Part shown: positions 13,434 through 61,465 of the stretch, piece by piece
Layout: every line of letters starts with the position of its first letter
How positions within the stretch are numbered: the stretch's first letter is position 1
From: Bacteroidia bacterium
Lineage (GTDB): Bacteria > Bacteroidota > Bacteroidia > Flavobacteriales > Flavobacteriaceae
Assembly (NCBI GenBank): GCA_030425285.1
Contig: JAUIAY010000002.1
Span: 1-64,000, forward strand
Length of the DNA stretch: 64,000 nt
Direction: 5' to 3'
The notes under the pieces: model-generated
Database searches by the model: none
What the model saw: only the letters and a program-made list of their open reading frames with translations
Told to the model about the DNA's origin: nothing
Program-made: the position numbers and the translations under genes

Positions 13434-14180
13434 ATGAAAATATTAGAAGGTAAAACAGCTATAATTACTGGGGCAAGTAGAGGAATAGGACGAGGTATTG
13501 CTCAAGTATTTGCACAACAAGGTGCCAATGTTGCCTTTACGTATAGCTCTTCTGTTGAAGCCGCTAACGAATTGGAGAAAGAATTGAATGCTTTGGGTGT
13601 TAAGGCTAAAGGATATAAAAGTAATGCTGCCAGTTTTCAGGAAGCGCAAGATTTAGCTGACTCGGTAGTAAGCGAATTTGGATCTATAGATATTTTGGTC
13701 AATAATGCTGGAATTACCAAGGATAATCTATTAATGCGTATCAGCGAAGAAGATTTTGATACAGTTATTGAGGTTAACTTAAAATCGGTTTTTAATATGA
13801 CCAAAGCTGTTCAACGTACCATGTTGAAGCAGCGTCAAGGCTCTATTATTAATATGAGTTCTGTTGTGGGTGTGAAAGGTAATGCAGGTCAGACCAACTA
13901 TGCGGCTTCAAAAGCTGGGATTATTGGCTTTTCTAAATCAGTAGCATTGGAATTAGGGTCTAGAAATATTAGAAGTAATGTCATTGCACCAGGTTTTATT
14001 GAAACGGAAATGACTGCTAAATTAGACGAAGATACTGTTAAAGGTTGGAGAGATTCTATTCCTTTAAAACGTGGAGGAACTCCTGAAGACATAGCTAATG
14101 CCTGCGTATTTTTGGCTAGTGATATGTCTGCTTACATTACAGGACAAACCCTGAATGTAGATGGAGGCATGCTAACATAA
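13434..14180 (+). CDS. fabG: 3-oxoacyl-ACP reductase FabG
   Basis: 248 residues, short-chain dehydrogenase. NADP site GASRGIGRG at residues 13-21, NNAGIT, and the catalytic triad with MSSVVG and Y156-x3-K160 in NYAASKAG. The C-terminal IAPGFIETEMTAKL and DVGGM-like end (NVDGGMLT) match FabG closely. It reduces 3-oxoacyl-ACP in fatty acid elongation and would supply the 3-hydroxyacyl chains used by the upstream Lpx enzymes. 13 bases separate it from the VWA gene, so they may be co-transcribed. Confidence 0.94.
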   Translation: MKILEGKTAIITGASRGIGRGIAQVFAQQGANVAFTYSSSVEAANELEKELNALGVKAKGYKSNAASFQEAQDLADSVVSEFGSIDILVNNAGITKDNLLMRISEEDFDTVIEVNLKSVFNMTKAVQRTMLKQRQGSIINMSSVVGVKGNAGQTNYAASKAGIIGFSKSVALELGSRNIRSNVIAPGFIETEMTAKLDEDTVKGWRDSIPLKRGGTPEDIANACVFLASDMSAYITGQTLNVDGGMLT

Positions 14181-53328: not shown

Positions 53329-53355
53329 TGTCATGCTGAACTCGTTTCAGCATCT
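53329..53355. repeat. REP-like hairpin, single arm
   Basis: TGTC then ATGCTGAA-CTCGT-TTCAGCAT: a perfect 8-bp stem with 5-base loop. Same family as the arrays at 53.7-56.2 and 61.3 kb. It lies 22 bases before the GIY-YIG start. Confidence 0.85.
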
Positions 53356-53376
53356 AAAAATTTGTTACATTTAGTT

Positions 53377-53673
53377 ATGGTAAAAAGAGCCTATCATAAC
53401 TATTGGGTATATATCCTAACAAATAAACCTCAAGGAACACTATATATAGGAGTTACTGGTGGGATTGATGACCGAATGGAACGCCATATAATTGGAGAAG
53501 GTAGCAGCTTCACTTCCAAATATAAATTGAACATGCTGGTTTACTTTGAAGAGTTTCAATACATACATGATGCCATCGCTAGAGAAAAACAACTAAAAAG
53601 ATGGCACCGACAATGGAAAATAAATCTTATTGAAAGTGAAAATCCAGAATGGAATAATCTTTTGAAATCCTAA
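53377..53673 (+). CDS. GIY-YIG domain nuclease
   Basis: 98 residues from ATG at 53377. GIY-YIG core: YWVYILTNKPQGTLYIGVTG with the two tyrosine motifs (VYI and YIG), followed by the conserved arginine (DRMERH) and the IAREKQLKRWHRQWK segment with the catalytic glutamate. Short URI/YhbQ-like stand-alone domain; likely nicks or cleaves DNA, role in repair or mobility unknown. Embedded among REP-like repeats on both sides. Confidence 0.9.
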   Translation: MVKRAYHNYWVYILTNKPQGTLYIGVTGGIDDRMERHIIGEGSSFTSKYKLNMLVYFEEFQYIHDAIAREKQLKRWHRQWKINLIESENPEWNNLLKS

Positions 53674-53680
53674 TGCACTA

Positions 53681-53851
53681 GGCCCTGAAACAAGTTCAGG
53701 GTGACAAACCCGGTAGGTCATAGAACTGTCATGCTGAACTCGTATCAGCATCTATTCTTTTGTCATTGAATTCGTTGAATCTTCGATTTCAGCATCTCTA
53801 TCTAGTTCGTCATACACATGGCCTTGTCATGCTGAATTTATTTCAGCATCT
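53681..53851. repeat. REP-like repeat cluster after GIY-YIG
   Basis: Three recognisable arms: CCCTGAA/TTCAGGG arm at 53681-53706, ATGCTGAA/(A)TCAGCAT arm at 53727-53753 and a third at 53825-53851; a degenerate arm lies near 53760-53797. The block 53697-53736 recurs almost unchanged at 55998-56037. No coding frame; sits between GIY-YIG and ohr. Confidence 0.8.
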
Positions 53852-53944
53852 AATCATCCCAATTTAAGACAACTTTATGACAATTCCCTTTACTATCAAA
53901 ACAGAGCTTATTATCTTTAGCTTATAACCTTAAAATAAAAAACA

Positions 53945-54373
53945 ATGAAAACATTATATGAAGCTACCACCGAAGCGGTTGGTGGGCGTAAAGGCTACGT
54001 AAAATCAGAGAACAGTCCGATTGACTTTAGCTTGTCTGTCCCTAAATCTATGGGTGGCGATGGCGGTAACGGTGCCAACCCGGAACAATTGTTTGGAGCA
54101 GCCTATGCAGCCTGTTTTGGTGGCGCCATACAGGCAGTAGCACAAAGTAAAAGTATAGAGATTGACGAGGACGCGTTGAGCGTCACGGCCGTAATTGGTT
54201 TTTGTCAAGATGATGATGGTTTCTTTTTGGAAGCTACGTTGGACTGCTATATACCAGGTGTAGATTTAAAGACCGGAGAGAAACTGGTTGAAAGTGCCCA
54301 TGTGGTTTGCCCGTTTAGTAAGGCAACCCGTGATAATATTACGGTGACCTTAAACTTGTTACTGGACGAATAA
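53945..54373 (+). CDS. ohr: Organic hydroperoxide resistance protein, Ohr/OsmC
   Basis: 142 residues, usual for Ohr. Peroxidatic C57 in YAACFGGAI and resolving C122 in HVVCPFSKATR, plus the GGDGGNGANPEQLF segment before them. Reduces organic hydroperoxides using lipoyl or dihydrolipoamide partners. No OhrR gene nearby. Flanked by REP-like repeats. Confidence 0.95.
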   Translation: MKTLYEATTEAVGGRKGYVKSENSPIDFSLSVPKSMGGDGGNGANPEQLFGAAYAACFGGAIQAVAQSKSIEIDEDALSVTAVIGFCQDDDGFFLEATLDCYIPGVDLKTGEKLVESAHVVCPFSKATRDNITVTLNLLLDE

Positions 54374-54770
54374 CTTTCAAACTTTGTCATGCTGAATTCA
54401 TTTCAGCATCTCATGAGATATCGTAAAAAGAGACCCTGAACCAAGTTCAGGGTGACAAGTCTAGTTTAAACCAGTTTTGTCATGCTGAACTTGTTTCAGC
54501 ATCTATTTAAATAGGTGTCTAAATTTTAGGTTTGGGCGCCTTTTTTTGTGCCTTGTCATGCTGAACTCGTTTCAGCATCCAGTCTTTTGTCATTCTCACA
54601 ACGAAGAATCTTTAAAACTAACATTCAACATCTTAAAAAAATCACTATCTTTATAAGGCACTTATAGTATCTAGTGCAACTCCCTCTAAAACTTCTCTAA
54701 TAGCGTAAAGCTATATCCTTCACATGGGATATGGCCATATATAGTTTCGTAATCAAAAAAACTAAAAGAT
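54374..54770. repeat. REP-like repeats in a 397-base gene-free gap
   Basis: Arms at 54385-54411, 54431-54457 (opposite orientation), 54478-54504 and 54554-54580. The first two form one composite: two hairpins facing each other, TGTCA at one end and TGACA at the other, linked by CATGAGATATCGTAAAAAG. The remainder to 54770 is AT-rich leader of the exonuclease-family gene with a small ATATCC/GGATAT hairpin near 54714. No coding frame seen. Confidence 0.8.
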
Positions 54771-55907
54771 ATGTGGTACAACGATTTACGCCCAGACAAC
54801 GAGCTAACCAATGACCGCTATGCACTCATCATGTTAGACGAAGTCAACAATTACAGTCGCATGCTCACCCAAGCCGACAAAAAAAGAACCCTGTCCAACC
54901 TCCTAAAACTACGAGCAGGACTCAAAGAAAAGATTCCGCCCAAAACCGTCGATACCAATTTGCTCCTCTGCTCGTGGAACATCAAAAACTTTGGCACACT
55001 CAAGGACCGTACGGCCGAGTCCCTATATTACATTGCCGAGATTATTAATGCTTTCGATATTGTGGCTGTACAAGAAGTGAATACCAACTTAAGCGACTTT
55101 AAAAAAGTACTCCGCCTATTAGGTAGCCATTGGAAACACGTGCTTACTGATACCACCGAAGGCAACGCTGGTAACGACGAACGCTTTGGTTTTATTTACG
55201 ATTCCCGTCGTGTTACCCATTCAGGGTTATCAGGTGAAATTGTCATTTCTCCAGAGCTTATTCAAAACAACCCTATAATAAGCCAGTTAAAGCGTACGCC
55301 CATCTTTACAGGTTTTGAGAGTGGTTGGCGCAAGTTCTCCATTGTTAGTGTGCACCTGCATCCTGGAGATGGTACCAATGACAAGGCTATCCGTAAGGAG
55401 GAAGTGCGCTTGCTCATTGAGGTGCTCAAGAAAAAGCTTAAAGTGCCTGAAACCGAATATCTCAATATGATTATCTTGGGCGATACCAACCTCTATGAAG
55501 ACGATACCGATATTGTAAAAATCATTACCGATACCCAATTTGAAGAAAGTAACGGACTCATAGGCAAGTTCACCAATACCAGTTTGAACCAGATTTACGA
55601 CCGTATCTTTCTAAATGTAGACGACTATTTTAAAATAGCTACCGACGAGAACGGCACCGAAAAGGGTGGGGTATTCAACCTGTTTGAATATGTATACCAA
55701 AACACACCCGCTGAAATTGCCCAATACCACCACCTTATGTTGGAGCATAAAGACGATCCCAGCACGCTCACATCAGATGCCAAATTCCAGTCGTATTTCA
55801 ATGCCCATTGGAAACGCAACCAAATAAGTGACCATTTGCCTGTTTGGCTGGAAATACAAACAGAAAGTAGTGATGAGTTTTTGGCTATTAAACTGAATAA
55901 GATGTAA
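54771..55907 (+). CDS. Endonuclease/exonuclease/phosphatase family protein
   Basis: 378 residues, no signal peptide. EEP fold: LLLCSWNIKNFGT (N motif), IVAVQEVNTNL with the catalytic glutamate, a VSVHLHPGDG strand, MIILGDTNLYEDD and a C-terminal QISDHLPVWL histidine-aspartate. These support a DNase-I-like phosphodiesterase acting on nucleic acid or other phosphodiesters. Higher GC and different codon use than the nuclease island downstream. Between two REP-rich gaps. Confidence 0.9.
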   Translation: MWYNDLRPDNELTNDRYALIMLDEVNNYSRMLTQADKKRTLSNLLKLRAGLKEKIPPKTVDTNLLLCSWNIKNFGTLKDRTAESLYYIAEIINAFDIVAVQEVNTNLSDFKKVLRLLGSHWKHVLTDTTEGNAGNDERFGFIYDSRRVTHSGLSGEIVISPELIQNNPIISQLKRTPIFTGFESGWRKFSIVSVHLHPGDGTNDKAIRKEEVRLLIEVLKKKLKVPETEYLNMIILGDTNLYEDDTDIVKIITDTQFEESNGLIGKFTNTSLNQIYDRIFLNVDDYFKIATDENGTEKGGVFNLFEYVYQNTPAEIAQYHHLMLEHKDDPSTLTSDAKFQSYFNAHWKRNQISDHLPVWLEIQTESSDEFLAIKLNKM

Positions 55908-55914
55908 TAGTTAT

Positions 55915-56163
55915 TGTCATGCTGAACGGACATTGAGGTTCTCGAAATGCAATTCAGCACCTCATGAGATATCGTAATAAGAGACCCTGAACCAAGTTCA
56001 GGGTGACAAACTCGGTAGTCATAGAACTGTCATGCTGAACGGACATTGAGGTTCTCGAAATGCATTTCAGCATCTTGTATTATATCTAAATTAGGAGACC
56101 CTGAATCAAGTTCAGGGTGACAAATCAAAAACTATCTGTCATGCTGAATTTATTTCAGCATCT
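55915..56163. repeat. REP-like composite repeats after the exonuclease gene
   Basis: Arms at 55915-55962 (long loop), 55982-56008, 56028-56075 (long loop), 56096-56122 and 56137-56163. The long-loop arms contain CGGACATTGAGGTTCTCG between the stem halves. 55915-56008 and 56028-56122 are two composites of opposed arms. The spacer CATGAGATATCGTAA is shared with the composite at 54385. The rest of the 386-base gap to 56293 holds the palindromic element listed next. Confidence 0.85.
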
Positions 56164-56176
56164 CAATAATCTAAAC

Positions 56177-56272
56177 GTCATTGCGATGCTGACGTTTACT
56201 GTCAGCAGAAGCAATCTCTATGGGGATAGGTAAACAAACGGATTGCTTCGTTCGTGCCTCACTCGCAATGAC
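56177..56272. repeat. MITE-like palindromic element, 96 bases
   Basis: Ends GTCATTGCGA and TCGCAATGAC are perfect 10-bp inverted repeats; inner GAAGCAATC (56208-56216) and GATTGCTTC (56241-56249) also pair. This shape resembles a dispersed element I recall from many Bacteroidota genomes. No transposase gene in the window. Lies just before the DUF6266 stop. Confidence 0.75.
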
Positions 56273-56293
56273 CCACACAGAATGGTCAATGAT

Positions 56294-56932
56294 CTACAAC
56301 AAGTATGAACCCAAATACGTACTGGTAGCTGTCATACCAGTTGCTGTATTGGTAAAGGTAGCCCAAAGCTCCACATGATGATCCCGAAAGGAATCTGGGA
56401 ATTCCAAAATAGCTTGGGTATCCTCACGAAGTGCTGTTTCCAAGAACAGTTCAAAAGTATGTAAAATAGGTGAGTAGGCTATCACTAAAAGACTATCATC
56501 TGCATAGGCCATACCTTGGTTGCTATTATCTGCCCACTGAAGGCGTAAGGTACGCGGTGCCAATACTGTTACTTCTGTTTGGGCGATACCGCATAGTGGG
56601 CCTTGACCTATCAGTACTTTAGGATATGCCATATAAAACCCGTTAGCATGATGCTGTACTGCTTCTTTTAAATGATAGGACAGGGCATTGTTAAAAGGTG
56701 TTTTGGTACTTTGGTTTTCACCAAAGGTTTCCATAAGTAATGCTTTTATGGGATTTAAAAATTGCAGAGCAAAAGCAAATTTATCGCGTTGTAGCTGTTG
56801 TGCTGGGCTTGGAGCTTTGTTACTTTTGGTTGGTTTAGACCGTATTACGGACTTACCACGCCATTGTGAACCAATTACGGGGCCTATAGTTCCAGAGAAA
56901 CTTCCTAATATGCCATTGTTATAAGTTGCCAT
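56294..56932 (-). CDS. DUF6266 family protein
   Basis: 212 residues. N-terminus with NGILGSFSGTIGPVIGSQWR and GKSVIRSKPTKSNKAPSPAQ, then a helix (QLQRDKFAFALQFLNPIKAL) and a beta-rich second half with LRLQWADNSNQGMAYADDSL. This matches DUF6266, a Bacteroidota family of unknown function that often occurs in accessory, repeat-rich regions. No signal peptide or membrane helix. It is divergent from the nuclease island, 370 bases away. Confidence 0.85.
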   Translation of the reverse strand: MATYNNGILGSFSGTIGPVIGSQWRGKSVIRSKPTKSNKAPSPAQQLQRDKFAFALQFLNPIKALLMETFGENQSTKTPFNNALSYHLKEAVQHHANGFYMAYPKVLIGQGPLCGIAQTEVTVLAPRTLRLQWADNSNQGMAYADDSLLVIAYSPILHTFELFLETALREDTQAILEFPDSFRDHHVELWATFTNTATGMTATSTYLGSYLL

Positions 56933-57040
56933 ACCATGATGTTTTTTTAGGGGTTAGCATATCAAATATAATCAAATAATCGATAAAGTGTATAAAAATA
57001 TCGATTAAATGTAATTATCTGTATAACTCATGTTCGGGAA

Positions 57041-57196
57041 TCCTTCGGGAATTGTTCGGGTTTTCTCCGTAAAATAAGGGCTTTTGCGAAGAATTCCCGA
57101 AGGAATGTGGTATTTGTCCCGAAGAAAATAGTAACAGATTAAGATTGTGTTTAGTAAACCCGCTTTGGTTTTGGAGAGAGCCAGAGTGGGTTTTTT
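57041..57196 (+). ncRNA. Candidate structured RNA in the DUF6266-HNH gap
   Basis: The 370-base gap 56933-57302 has no coding frame. It contains a 13-bp inverted repeat (57041-57053 with 57092-57104, core CCTTCGGGAATT) and, 52 bases on, a strong terminator at 57156-57196. No plus-strand gene lies upstream for that terminator to serve, since DUF6266 is transcribed leftward. A small RNA, or the leftover end of a deleted gene, would explain it. Weakly supported. Confidence 0.3.
57156..57196 (+). terminator. Strong terminator upstream of the HNH gene
   Basis: AAACCCGCTTTGG pairs with CCAGAGTGGGTTT (13 bp, two G-U), 12-base loop, then TTTT. It may insulate the island from upstream transcription. 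Confidence 0.8.
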
Positions 57197-57302
57197 GGAT
57201 TACTTTTTTTTAACATATGAAGTGTTCAATACGTTTAGTATAATTCACTGAATAAATGAATATCTTATATATTTGATTTTAATAATATCCTAGTATTTAT
57301 TT

Positions 57303-59405
57303 ATGAGTAAAGCAAGACAGTACAAAACATCTCACTTAAAAAAGTTATTTGCCTTATCAGGTAATAATTGTGCTATGCCAAATTGTTCTAGAAGTTTAGT
57401 TTCCAAAGATGGTAATACTGTTATTGGAAAAATATGTCATATTGAAGCGGCAAGTGAATTAGGTCCTAGATGGAACATAGATATGACTGAAGATGAAAGA
57501 AGAGATTTTAAGAATTTGATTTTAATGTGTAGTGAGCATCACGATGAAATTGATGATAAAGCTAATATTAAAAAATATACCACAAGTGTCTTAAAAACTA
57601 TGAAAGAGGATCATGAATCTGGAAATAGAATCATGCCTTTTGAAGTAAAAGAAGAGCATATTGAACAAGTTTATAACCAACTTGATGAAATTTTAGATAT
57701 TGTAAAAATTTCTCATAAAGATATACAAATTGTAAAGTCACAAAATGATGAAATGTTTAACTTAATTAAGGAAATCCATATAGCTACTACTGGGAATATC
57801 TCTGCAATCGATAAAGAAAAGATGGCTACTTTAATTGGTGAAAATTTTGATTGGGTGGATTCTAATAAAATGCAAGCGTTTCAAAAGATTCTTGCAAATT
57901 ATAACAAAACTATTTTGGACCGTAGAGAAAAATTCATATTCAGTCAAAAAATAACTCGATCATTATTTGAAATATCTGTTCTAGAAGATATTTCAAAAGC
58001 GTGGTCTAAAGATTCGTGGAATCCAGAAAACTTGGATCATTTGCGTTTTATTCAAGGAGGTATAATGGCATACAATTGTTTAGAACAAATTCCAAAAGAA
58101 ATTATAAATGATTTTAAAATGCTGAATTGGGGTCCAATTCATCATGGGTATTTTGATGGCTATCTAGGATCATTTATTAGTGAAATAAAGCTAAAAATGA
58201 AGCTCAATATTAATTTGGTTGACGCATATCGTAATGATAGATATTTATTTGAAAACCTAAACAGAATTTTTATTTCATTGCAAGGATATCTTAAATTTGA
58301 TGTTAATGATTTATATGTTGAAAAAGAAGAAGCGCTCATTATAAAAAAGCTTCCCCGAAATTTTCTTCTTTTAAATAGTTCTAATAAGATAACCATAAGA
58401 AAAACTACCGATTTTGATTTTGTTTTAGCAAGTCTTCCACTAAATAAGCTATTTAGAGTAATAAAAACAGAAGTCATACGAAATAAAGATAAAGTTGTAA
58501 TATTTGGCTTCTATGGTGGTGAGTGTTTTTATTGGAACCCTGAAGAAGATATTACATCAAAAGTTCTCTATAAATCCGAAGAAAATGAAAAAATAACTAA
58601 TATGTTTTGCGAGTCCATGATTTCGGGTAAGATAGAGTGTTATGTTCAAATAAAGAATAAATTAGTTCATTTTATCGATTTTAAGGAAAATGAAACGATC
58701 TTTTTTGAAAAAAAATTAGACTTAATTAAATCTGGAAAAAAATTCATTGGAGTAAATATTCAGTTATACAATAAGAAAGATGTGATTATTTATTCTATAA
58801 ATGAAAACTTTAAGATTAAACCAATATTAAAATGGGGTGATTTATGGGAAAAAGTTAGGGCAGATGAAAATGTTAAAAGTTGGATTGAAATTAATAAAAG
58901 TGATGACGAGATTTTAAATCATATTAATGACTTAAACAACTTAAGTGTTCAAAAATTAAACTATGATAAAAAAGACTTGTACTTGATAAAAGGTACAATC
59001 TTTAATGCAAATGTTTTAGTAATAATAGAAATCAGTGAAGAAATTGTAGAATACCACAATATTATACTATTAAAAAAATCAAGAACTATAACTATTGACT
59101 CGCAATATAATTCAAATGTTTTAGAATTGTGTTGCGGATATTTAGACTTAAACAGGAAAGATTCAGTATTTGAATATATTAAAATCACAAACTTAGATAA
59201 AGTAGAGTCGATTACAATAAATAAGGAGCGAAATGGGGATTTAAATTGTAGGGATGTTTTTCAAATTTGCTTCGGTGCAACGGATACTATTTATTTAAAT
59301 GAAGAAGGAAATAAACTTTACAAATATTCTTTTTCAAAAAATGAGTTTTTTCTATGTTCAACTGAAGAAAATGAAAAAATTAATGGTATTGAGTATATTA
59401 ACTAA
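57303..59405 (+). CDS. HNH nuclease-domain protein with large beta-rich C-terminus
   Basis: 700 residues. HNH domain at ~10-95: zinc-type cysteines C23 and C28 (CAMPNC), C45-H46 in ICHIEAAS as the likely catalytic histidine, N71 in NLILMCSEHHDEID and H79/H80 for metal. A helical linker with coiled-coil character follows (~110-240), then residues ~330-700 form a series of strands with recurring FGFYGGECFYW-like blades that suggest a beta-propeller or sensor domain; that is inference. Very AT-rich codon use unlike flanking genes. The next gene follows after 27 bases. Probably the first gene of a two-gene defence-like unit. Confidence 0.8.
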   Translation: MSKARQYKTSHLKKLFALSGNNCAMPNCSRSLVSKDGNTVIGKICHIEAASELGPRWNIDMTEDERRDFKNLILMCSEHHDEIDDKANIKKYTTSVLKTMKEDHESGNRIMPFEVKEEHIEQVYNQLDEILDIVKISHKDIQIVKSQNDEMFNLIKEIHIATTGNISAIDKEKMATLIGENFDWVDSNKMQAFQKILANYNKTILDRREKFIFSQKITRSLFEISVLEDISKAWSKDSWNPENLDHLRFIQGGIMAYNCLEQIPKEIINDFKMLNWGPIHHGYFDGYLGSFISEIKLKMKLNINLVDAYRNDRYLFENLNRIFISLQGYLKFDVNDLYVEKEEALIIKKLPRNFLLLNSSNKITIRKTTDFDFVLASLPLNKLFRVIKTEVIRNKDKVVIFGFYGGECFYWNPEEDITSKVLYKSEENEKITNMFCESMISGKIECYVQIKNKLVHFIDFKENETIFFEKKLDLIKSGKKFIGVNIQLYNKKDVIIYSINENFKIKPILKWGDLWEKVRADENVKSWIEINKSDDEILNHINDLNNLSVQKLNYDKKDLYLIKGTIFNANVLVIIEISEEIVEYHNIILLKKSRTITIDSQYNSNVLELCCGYLDLNRKDSVFEYIKITNLDKVESITINKERNGDLNCRDVFQICFGATDTIYLNEEGNKLYKYSFSKNEFFLCSTEENEKINGIEYIN

Positions 59406-59432
59406 TCTTAATGAATAAGAAGATAAAGTAAA

Positions 59433-61193
59433 TTGATAGGAATAATTTTAAAATACTCTAATTTTTATAACAAACCAATACCAGAAAACCCAATTGGATT
59501 AATAACGCATTTACCAAAAAATGAGGTTATTGTAACTATTGCAAAAATAAATACCCTTTTACAGCCACAGGGATATCGTAATTCTGATAATTCTAAAGAA
59601 ACTCAAATAGAATGTCTAAAGGCAATTATATTACAAGACAAAAAAAATACTCCATTAGAGTATCGTAGGACATTTCAAAGGTATAAAGAATATCTAAACA
59701 ATCTACCTGAAGAATATACTGTTTTTACGAGGGGTTGCTGTCTTTATGCATTAAATGAAATACTACAATCAGATAACTTTTTAAAAGTTGACAAAAAAAA
59801 GTATTTACAAGAAGAAAGATTAGGCATATTTGATTATTTGTTATGTTGTAATGAAAGAATTTTGAATTTCTCAAATGTAGAACCGTATGAAAACATTACT
59901 GGGCAAGGGTTAAATTTCTTTGAATTTTTTGCATTTAATCAAATGCCATTCAATCAATATTCAATTACGATAAATAGTTTGACTAAACTTTATAAATCAG
60001 CTATTTTCCTTAAATGTTTAATGAATGATGATTCTACAAAAGACCATTTAGTGAATTATTTTAAAAGCAAGTATGGTCTTGATGATATTGAAGAATTCTT
60101 TAAAGTATTTATTTATTCATTTTTAAAAATGTACGATGAAAAATTAAAAATTTATCATCTAAAAATCGACAATCAACAGAAGGCTATAATAAAAATAATT
60201 AAAGGTTTTAGTGATAATACTCCTATTAAAACAGTAAACCACGATGATGTTAAAATTTTAGATTTTTTAGCTGTTAAAAAGAACCCTATATTTTCATGGG
60301 AAATATTAAGTTCAGATGATTTTACTGGGTTTGTAGTTTTGGATATGGCATTTTTATTAGAAAAAATGGATTCATTCTTTATTAATGATTTTTGGTTTGA
60401 TTACTTAAAGACCCATTCAGACTTCAACCGAAAAGCTTGGGGTAATTTTATTGGTTCAAATTTTTTTGAACCTCTTGTAGAAGATGTTATCTCTAATACA
60501 TTCAGCAACAAATACGATTATTCAATAAAATTACTTGATGATTTAAAAATTACTCTTCCAGGTAAGCCAGAAATAGAAATTGCAGATGTATATATAAGAC
60601 AGAAACAAAAAATTGCTTGTATTGAAGTGAAAAGCAATTTTATTAATATGGTTGATGGATATAAAAGTGTTACTAACATTGAGGAATTTAAGGCATTAGA
60701 TTTAAATAAATTTTATAAAAGCTTTGGGTTAACACAAATGTTGGATACTATGAAAAACTTTCATATATATAAGAACTATCTTAATGATGGGGAATTGAAT
60801 TTGAATCGAAAATTACATTTATATCCTATAATACTTGTTAATGAGCCTATATTGTCAAGTGGTCTATTTAATTTCCCCCTTCGACAACAATTTGAAAATA
60901 TGTTAAGTGAAGAAAATATTGCACAAAAATCTAAAGAGCATATTATTTGGCCACTTGTAATAATTAATATTGAAGAATTCCAGGAGTTAGAGCAATCCAT
61001 TCAAGATGACGACATAGATTTTTTTAAGATTCTAGACTCATTAATTGACAAAACCTCAATACATGGAAAGATTTCAAAGAATAAATACAAAACATTATTG
61101 ACCATGCATAATTTAATTAATGAAAAAATTGAATTTGATAAGTTATTTCCTTCAAGGCTGAAGGATTTTAAATGGACATTTGCCAAAGAATAA
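59433..61193 (+). CDS. Large protein with PD-(D/E)xK-like nuclease motif
   Basis: 586 residues. No whole-length family recognised. In the C-terminal part, D385 (EIEIADVYIRQ) is followed by E398-V-K400 (KIACIEVKSNF) at a strand-turn-strand position, the D-x(n)-E-x-K signature of PD-(D/E)xK restriction-type nucleases; the helix with FFEPLVEDVI upstream could give the extra acidic residue. N-terminal ~340 residues are helical with no motif known to me. Start is TTG at 59433; a nearby ATG at 59411 is in another frame and stops after six codons. Same strand and composition as the HNH gene. Confidence 0.75.
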   Translation: MIGIILKYSNFYNKPIPENPIGLITHLPKNEVIVTIAKINTLLQPQGYRNSDNSKETQIECLKAIILQDKKNTPLEYRRTFQRYKEYLNNLPEEYTVFTRGCCLYALNEILQSDNFLKVDKKKYLQEERLGIFDYLLCCNERILNFSNVEPYENITGQGLNFFEFFAFNQMPFNQYSITINSLTKLYKSAIFLKCLMNDDSTKDHLVNYFKSKYGLDDIEEFFKVFIYSFLKMYDEKLKIYHLKIDNQQKAIIKIIKGFSDNTPIKTVNHDDVKILDFLAVKKNPIFSWEILSSDDFTGFVVLDMAFLLEKMDSFFINDFWFDYLKTHSDFNRKAWGNFIGSNFFEPLVEDVISNTFSNKYDYSIKLLDDLKITLPGKPEIEIADVYIRQKQKIACIEVKSNFINMVDGYKSVTNIEEFKALDLNKFYKSFGLTQMLDTMKNFHIYKNYLNDGELNLNRKLHLYPIILVNEPILSSGLFNFPLRQQFENMLSEENIAQKSKEHIIWPLVIINIEEFQELEQSIQDDDIDFFKILDSLIDKTSIHGKISKNKYKTLLTMHNLINEKIEFDKLFPSRLKDFKWTFAKE

Positions 61194-61262
61194 ATAATTA
61201 TTAATCTTTTATTTTAATCTAATAAAAGACTGACTCCCAACAACCAATTTGTTTGTAGTGTT

Positions 61263-61354
61263 AGACCCTGAAACACATTTCGAGAGCCTCAATGTTAGTT
61301 CAGGATGACAAAGGTGGGCTTGTAATAAGATCCTGAAACAAGTTCAGGATGACA
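61263..61354. repeat. REP-like hairpins after the nuclease island
   Basis: Two arms in the opposite orientation to most others: 61263-61310 (long loop with CGAGAGCCTCAATG) and 61328-61354 (ATCCTGAA/TTCAGGAT). With the repeats at 55.9-56.2 kb they bracket the DUF6266-HNH-nuclease segment. The rest of 61194-61465 is leader of the kinase gene and a weak CTTTTATT/AATAAAAG hairpin at 61206-61228. Confidence 0.8.
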
Positions 61355-61367
61355 AATTGCGTGTGTT

Positions 61368-61431: not shown

Positions 61432-61465
61432 AGTGTTAAAAAGTATTTTGTTGCTTTGTTTTATA

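What the first reader, a model, noticed from the sequence alone, without database searches (positions are those of the whole stretch)
57303..61193. Two-gene nuclease island: HNH protein plus PD-(D/E)xK-like protein
Two long genes, 27 bases apart on one strand, with very AT-rich codon use compared with the neighbours at 54.8-56.9 and 61.4-64 kb. The first carries an HNH motif (C23, C28, H46, N71, H80), the second a D385-x12-E398-V-K400 motif. Neither has a full-length family that I recognise. The pair sits between REP-like repeats and a DUF6266 gene, an accessory setting. The combination of two nuclease-type domains with large unassigned regions fits an anti-phage or anti-plasmid defence module. 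Function is inference; the motifs and composition are seen.
Basis: partly seen in the sequence, partly recalled or inferred. Interest (0 to 1): 0.75.

Follow-up and report, generated by a model that had tools for sequence, protein, structure and literature searches.

The report
Two-nuclease gene pair in defence hotspot
A flavobacterium carries, at a chromosomal site where close relatives keep other cargo (in one of them a virus-defence system), two adjacent genes for different predicted DNA-cutting proteins, which most likely protect it against viruses or other invading DNA.

Summary
Two long AT-rich genes (57303-59405, 700 aa; 59433-61193, 586 aa) lie 27 bases apart between REP-like repeats. 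P1 carries an HNH domain (aa 4-109) whose best profile relatives are anti-phage effectors (PADLOC PDC-M68A 2.8e-31; CBASS, SAVED-HNH, Shedu models). The other ~570 aa match no family; the one relative of that part found, in Kordia algicida, lacks HNH, is split into two frames and has no P2 beside it. P2 belongs to an unnamed family: in 8 aligned sequences E346, D385, K400 and Q435 are invariant and 398 is E (Q in two), as in PD-(D/E/Q)xK nucleases. Of 8 other genomes with a P2 relative, 4 carry known or candidate defence genes nearby (type I RM, Septu-like, C5-methylase with NERD-helicase, Tin) and 2 conjugation genes; none shows P1 in the flanks fetched. One sister species lacks the insert; in another the same gap holds DRT3, and an identical 46-bp hairpin precedes both cargoes. 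Defence cargo is well supported by context; 'one two-gene module' is not, since the partners occur apart. Both structure predictions failed. New variant of a known kind; no function is shown.

The parts
57303..59405 (+). P1: 700-aa HNH protein. aa 4-109 HNH (57312-57629); aa ~117-330 predicted helical; aa ~344-700 predicted mostly strands, no known family
   Evidence: HNH; C-terminal part without a family, one relative; secondary structure from a low-confidence model
59433..61193 (+). P2: 586-aa PD-(D/E/Q)xK-type protein, TTG start; E346, D385, E398-x-K400, Q435; aa 1-330 unassigned
57151..57196 (+). 46-bp element with a 17-pair terminator-like hairpin, 106 nt upstream of P1; 100% identical to a copy 103 nt upstream of the Drt3a frame at the same site of a sister species
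55928..61327 (.). stretch absent from sister species G385 (holds DUF6266, P1, P2)
   Evidence: homology with G385 stops at 55927 and resumes at 61328
55914..56163 (.). REP-like repeats at the left edge
61263..61356 (.). REP-like repeats at the right edge; the G385 copy (L037 reverse complement 13715-13742) matches both edges
56294..56932 (-). DUF6266 gene inside the variable stretch; probably a neighbour, not a component
   Evidence: a 43% relative lies near P2 in G130

Best explanation
This is horizontally acquired, strain-variable defence cargo at a chromosomal site (between an OsmC-like gene at 53945 and the LytS/LytR-type pair at 61433; these two names are recalled from the sequences) of a genome in the same family as Kordia. 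It consists of two nucleases in tandem, probably one transcript. P1 is a sensor-effector fusion: an HNH DNase of the kind found in CBASS Cap5, SAVED-HNH and Shedu-like proteins is held inactive by a ~570-aa C-terminal part, which recognises an infection cue and then lets the HNH cut DNA. P2 is a member of an unnamed PD-(D/E)xK family that recurs in defence islands and mobile elements, and most likely cuts invading DNA on its own. Shown: the genes, the HNH homology, conservation of the PD-(D/E)xK motif, the site variability, the defence neighbours. Inferred: transcription as one unit, nuclease activity, sensing by the C-terminal part, protection, and that each works without the other.
For: HNH of P1: PADLOC PDC-M68A 2.8e-31, CBASS Effector 6.5e-22, SAVED_HNH 4.5e-21, SduA 4e-18; all 15 models hit stay within aa 3-149. 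PDB 9om4 3.2e-10, 8ysq 3.7e-7, 7rwk 1.4e-4, with C23, C28, H46, N71 and H79 kept in these three. Different N-terminus on the same C-terminal part: Kordia relative 50% identical over aa 125-476, no HNH hit. P2 motif: E346, D385, K400, Q435 invariant in 8 sequences, 398 E in six and Q in two (20-39% identity to P2 over the whole length; 23-52% over the motif region). Site: G385 lacks the insert, its Exo_endo_phos gene lying about 240 bp from LytS; G230 has Drt3b 1.7e-189, Drt3a 6.7e-102 and a DUF2779 gene there; G1099 has other cargo. P2 neighbours in other genomes: type I RM plus PDC-M62A/B (G130), type I RM plus PDC-S31 (G182), C5-methylase plus NERD-helicase (G255, one of two copies), Tin plus a PDC-S26-like gene (G1028), conjugation TraG (G659, G1046).
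Against: No activity or phenotype is shown. Both AlphaFold2 models failed (pLDDT 38.4 and 33.4), so neither fold is confirmed. Of the 8 genomes with P2 relatives, G033 and G964 show no known defence gene in the stretch read (in both a contig end lies close to the gene), and the other G255 copy (L012) sits among small cassette genes. No matched random control for the neighbourhoods was run. Profile support for PD-(D/E)xK is weak: one of 8 members hits CARF_PDDEXK at E 0.014, while other weak single-member hits point elsewhere (Pfam PC-Esterase 5.4e-4 and LZ3wCH 0.0039; PADLOC Cas11b 0.011 and HEC-02B 0.037); I take those as chance. The C-terminal part of P1 is rare, so its N-terminal swap rests on one relative, itself split into two frames with about 30 residues missing.
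Confidence: 0.66

Rival explanations
1. P1 and P2 form one obligate two-protein defence system, for example P1 as sensor and first nuclease, P2 as partner nuclease, both needed for protection.
For: Same strand, 27 bases apart, same low GC and GC3, which fits joint transcription and a shared history in this genome.
Against: P1 and its parts are absent from all 9 P2 places in 8 other genomes as far as the fetched flanks reach, and P2 is absent from the Kordia locus. Two nucleases side by side in an island can also be two independent systems.
Confidence: 0.22
2. P1 is a CBASS effector (Cap5-like) that answers a cyclic-nucleotide signal made by a CD-NTase elsewhere in the genome.
For: Its HNH domain is of the Cap5/SAVED-HNH type.
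Against: The C-terminal part alone hits no PADLOC model at E up to 0.1, SAVED models included; no SMODS (PF18144) gene in the own genome, while the same search rings in 3 of 14 control genomes, over the cut-off in 2. CD-NTases outside that Pfam model were not searched.
Confidence: 0.05
3. The pair serves another task, such as competition between mobile elements (anti-plasmid, superinfection exclusion) or DNA uptake and repair, not defence against phages.
For: P2 relatives also sit near conjugation genes (G659, G1046) and in a cassette array (G255).
Against: Known or candidate defence genes near P2 in 4 of 8 other genomes and DRT3 at the same site of a sister species.
Confidence: 0.2
4. The cargo is decaying or silent and has no present function.
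For: The Kordia relative of P1's C-terminal part is split and the G1046 relative of P2 is a fragment with stops.
Against: Both window genes are intact over 700 and 586 codons with their motif residues.
Confidence: 0.07

Closest known systems
Cap5 (CBASS HNH-SAVED effector; PDB 7rwk, 8ysq, 8fm1 are listed only as SAVED domain-containing proteins, the name Cap5 for them is recalled)
   Same: N-terminal HNH of the same subtype, large C-terminal sensing part (PMC8568899, passages seen)
   Different: No SAVED domain detected, no SMODS cyclase found in the genome
PDC-M68A (PADLOC phage-defence candidate)
   Same: Best profile hit to the HNH part, E 2.8e-31, profile positions 2-109 of 253
   Different: Rest of the model not matched; P1 has about 590 further residues
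Shedu (a SduA model with an N-terminal HNH-like stretch)
   Same: HNH part hits an SduA model, E 4e-18
   Different: Only positions 13-114 of 326 match; no DUF4263 hit in P1 or P2
Mrr-nuclease plus 7-bladed beta-propeller defence protein of Vassallo et al. 2022 (PMC9519451; passages seen)
   Same: Single protein with an N-terminal nuclease and a large C-terminal part; P1's C-terminal part is predicted mostly strands (low confidence)
   Different: Different nuclease type; a propeller in P1 is not established (no internal repeats; structure hits unreliable)
CARF-PD-(D/E)xK nucleases (Card1/Can2 type, names recalled)
   Same: One P2 relative (G964) hits PADLOC CARF_PDDEXK over its catalytic region, E 0.014
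   Different: Not significant; no CARF match seen
Septu (PtuAB) and type I restriction-modification
   Same: Neighbours of P2 relatives
   Different: No similarity to P1 or P2 was found in the profile scans beyond both having an HNH in PtuB-like neighbours

Membership tests
HNH nucleases of defence effectors (Cap5/PDC-M68/SduA type) | HNH motif with paired cysteines and histidines | tested here: met
   C23, C28, H46, N71, H79 kept in three PDB relatives, H80 in two
CBASS Cap5 | C-terminal SAVED domain | tested here: not met
   C-terminal part alone: 0 PADLOC families at E up to 0.1
CBASS Cap5 | cognate CD-NTase | tested here: not met
   no SMODS in own genome; other nucleotidyltransferase models not searched
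PDC-M68A | match over the whole model | tested here: not met
   positions 2-109 of 253 only
Shedu SduA | DUF4263 PD-(D/E)xK domain | tested here: not met
   no Pfam DUF4263 hit in P1 or P2, no SduA hit in P2, in P1 only over the HNH part
PD-(D/E)xK superfamily (P2) | conserved acidic and lysine catalytic motif | tested here: met
   E346, D385, K400, Q435 invariant, 398 E in six and Q in two (G182, G1028) of 8 aligned sequences
PD-(D/E)xK superfamily (P2) | alpha-beta core fold | tested here: inconclusive
   model pLDDT 33.4; PDB profile searches gave one chance-level hit each
Defence-island gene | recurrent neighbours from known or candidate defence systems | tested here: met
   4 of 8 other genomes with a P2 relative, without a random control; same-site DRT3
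Any anti-phage system | protection against phage | not testable with these tools
   needs plaque assays
beta-propeller protein (P1 C-terminal part) | repeated four-stranded blades | tested here: inconclusive
   no internal repeats by hhalign; failed model, Foldseek TM-scores 0.04-0.17 in the 50 rows shown of 681

The most novel reading that the evidence does not exclude
P1's ~570-aa C-terminal part is a new type of infection sensor that carries interchangeable effector domains (HNH here, another N-terminus in Kordia), and P2 founds a new single-gene PD-(D/E/Q)xK defence family of Flavobacteria and relatives that travels through RM islands, conjugative elements and integron-like cassette arrays; here the two have been joined into one two-nuclease operon.
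Probability: 0.35. Interest if true: 0.65.

Novelty: new variant of a known kind. Interest (0 to 1): 0.5.

Why it matters
If true, it adds an unnamed nuclease family with repeated defence neighbours (P2), a new sensing part for a widely reused HNH effector (P1), and a testable defence hotspot between OsmC-like and LytS-like genes in a flavobacterial genus, a lineage from which few defence systems have been tested (the last clause is recalled, not searched).

Tried and rejected
Structure: AlphaFold2 on P1 with its Kordia relative (3 rows) gave pLDDT 38.4 and on P2 alone 33.4. A Foldseek search with the P1 model listed many beta-propellers, but TM-scores were 0.04-0.17 in the 50 rows shown of 681, so it is no evidence. 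No structure search was made with the P2 model. P2 relatives came from the genome search, which the rule of the structure tool does not name, so I did not send them. hhalign of P1's C-terminal part against itself found no repeats.

More relatives of P1's C-terminal part: 2 of 397 family genomes, the own one included; 1 of 395 of the phylum, own; 1 of 395 of the order, own; 1 of 11 of the Kordia genus; scan of the 84,980-species collection, but with two short patterns, so insensitive: Kordia only; viral contigs: none. Samples overlap, so the counts cannot be added. P2: none in plasmids or phages or viral contigs. P1 on plasmids: 208 records, 0 covering 80% of it, and the 20 rows listed match only within aa 3-193; on phages 2 records, aa 1-105. 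Kordia's N-terminal domain: Pfam and PADLOC only chance-level hits, no match on plasmids, 0 of 90 genomes in a set without a positive control. Rfam on 56900-57320: nothing. Literature, in the open-access library only: no paper held contains PDC-M68, 9OM4 or DUF6266; searches for HNH with propeller or sensor terms, for Cap5, for flavobacterial defence hotspots and for integrons showed no such fusion or site in the titles and abstract starts listed. PMC8568899, PMC9519451 and PMC10952713 were seen as passages only.

Rejected: CBASS membership; 'homologues only in housekeeping contexts'; full-length PDC-M68A or Shedu membership.
Full report
OBSERVATION. The two open frames, their spacing, AT-richness and the motif residues are as described. 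P1 is 57303-59405 (+), P2 is 59433-61193 (+). P2's TTG start agrees with the ATG starts of the G130 and G033 relatives. GC3 is 20-21% against 32% (DUF6266) to 50% (Exo_endo_phos) in five neighbours.

P1. The first ~109 residues are an HNH domain of a subtype reused in defence effectors. Fifteen PADLOC models hit at E below 1, best PDC-M68A 2.8e-31, then CBASS endonuclease effectors, SAVED_HNH and SduA; every hit stays within aa 3-149. Among solved structures the best are 9om4 (named HNH endonuclease, 3.2e-10), then 8ysq, 7rwk and, weakly, 8fm1 (named SAVED domain-containing proteins). Pfam HNH_2 is below its cut-off (14.7 against 21 bits). The remaining ~570 residues have no hit in Pfam, NCBIfam or PADLOC (the last on that part alone) and only a chance-level one in PHROGs (0.23). 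One relative was found, in Kordia algicida OT-1 (G353, L017; taken as one genome because contig length and place agree): 50% identity over aa 125-476 and 33% over 475-700, with a different, unassigned N-terminus instead of HNH, and the gene split into two frames that overlap by four bases with about 30 residues missing. It may be broken. A swapped N-terminus on a shared C-terminal part is what sensor-effector defence proteins show (recalled), but one case is thin.

P2. Relatives were found in 4 of 298 other family genomes (G255 has two places) and in 4 of 394 other genomes of the order sample (G1028, G964, distant G659 at E 5.8e-7, and a short G1046 fragment with stops), 8 other genomes in all. 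Eight sequences (the window's, one of the two G255 copies, and G130, G033, G182, G1028, G964, G659; the G1046 fragment and the second G255 copy left out) were aligned. E346, D385, K400 and Q435 are among 17 invariant positions; position 398 is E in six and Q in two (G182, G1028). E...D...(E/Q)xK...Q is the pattern of PD-(D/E)xK nucleases, with Q as in Mrr-like members and a later Q as in RecB-like members (both recalled). The fold was not confirmed: the single-sequence model failed (pLDDT 33.4), PDB profile searches gave one chance-level hit each, and family scans of the 8 members gave only scattered single-member hits, CARF_PDDEXK 0.014 among them, PC-Esterase 5.4e-4 the lowest.

SITE. In 4 of 5 genomes of the genus (own included) a LytS relative of at least 90% identity was found; G1100 has none at that level. 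The region beside it was read in the 3 other genomes G385, G1099 and G230. G385: homology to the window stops at 55927 and resumes at 61328, and the Exo_endo_phos gene lies about 240 bp from LytS, so DUF6266, P1 and P2 are absent. A 28-bp REP-like element at that point of G385 matches both edges of the window insert, and also window 54431-54458 and 56096-56123. G385 also has unassigned genes between OsmC and Exo; the two largest, 632 and 471 aa, hit no PADLOC family. G230: the gap holds Drt3a, Drt3b and a DUF2779 gene. G1099: ABC-transporter-like and other genes, named from reading the frames only. A 46-bp hairpin element 106 nt upstream of P1 is 100% identical to one 103 nt upstream of the Drt3a frame in G230, and its 38-bp core occurs once in each of these two genomes and, with up to 3 mismatches, in none of the other three. 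So different cargo has been placed at the same junction of one variable site. I read this as allelic exchange at a defence hotspot; the route of exchange is inferred.

NEIGHBOURS OF P2 ELSEWHERE. G130: hsdR, hsdM, hsdS-like, P2, then PDC-M62A and PDC-M62B (Septu-like). G182: hsdM, hsdS-like, PDC-S31, hsdR, then P2. G255, L013 copy: C5-methylase and NERD-helicase about 1 kb and 2.7 kb downstream. G1028: Tin (1.8e-48) upstream, divergent, and a PDC-S26-like gene (3.4e-9) downstream. G659 and G1046: TraG-type conjugation genes. G255, L012 copy: small cassette genes. G033: a small unassigned gene without a PADLOC hit and housekeeping-like genes named from reading; the contig ends on the other side. 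G964: no known defence gene seen, contig end close by (hsdS named from reading). Known or candidate defence genes thus lie near P2 in 4 of 8 other genomes. There was no matched random control, so enrichment is a judgement. P1 or its HNH was found at none of the 9 places, as far as the fetched flanks reach.

MECHANISM. Shown: genes, homology, motif conservation, site variability, defence neighbours. Inferred: P1 senses an infection cue through its C-terminal part and its HNH then cuts DNA; P2 cuts DNA by itself; both serve defence. The low-confidence P1 model has helices to about residue 330 and mostly strands from 344 on, which would fit a propeller-like sensor, and a published defence protein joins an Mrr nuclease to a 7-bladed propeller (PMC9519451, passages seen). 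This remains a lead: no repeats were found and the structure search is unreliable. CBASS is disfavoured because no SAVED domain and no SMODS gene were found.

VERDICT. Real, accessory, very probably defence.

Noticed in passing
L012, L013, L052 (G255 contig 1, stretches read: 2060000-2090000 and 2134000-2150000): Array of small same-strand genes separated by ~140-bp imperfect palindromes that look like attC sites of an integron; two copies of a P2 relative ride in it. Two sites folded on both strands, z-scores -2.25 to -3.93. No integron integrase over its cut-off; a short weak integrase-like remnant (E 5.6e-4, a family that also rings below cut-off in all 14 controls) lies at 2063188-2063292, at the start of the array.
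   Followed up: partly
L039 5204-10967 (G230): DRT3 (Drt3a and Drt3b) plus a DUF2779 gene in the same OsmC-LytS gap that holds P1-P2 in the window.
   Followed up: yes
window 53330-54575, 55981-56158, 61333-61353: REP-like palindromic repeats: 14 pattern matches, 0.02 expected; a GIY-YIG gene (53362-53673) lies inside the first cluster.
   Followed up: partly
window 56294-56932; L014 5130-5771: DUF6266 genes lie near the P2 gene both here and in G130 (43% identity); DUF6266 may mark such variable sites. No paper held contains the name.
   Followed up: partly
L017 6581-7030 (Kordia algicida): Unassigned N-terminal domain on a P1-type C-terminal part; only chance-level family hits, 0 of 90 genomes.
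   Followed up: partly
window 54771-55907: Exo_endo_phos gene (MnuA-family hit 1.4e-18, below that model's cut-off), 97% identical in G385 but without a match in the regions read in G230 and G1099; itself variable cargo.
   Followed up: partly
L037 5828-9204 (G385): Two unassigned genes (632 and 471 aa) in the same hotspot; candidates for unknown defence genes.
   Followed up: partly
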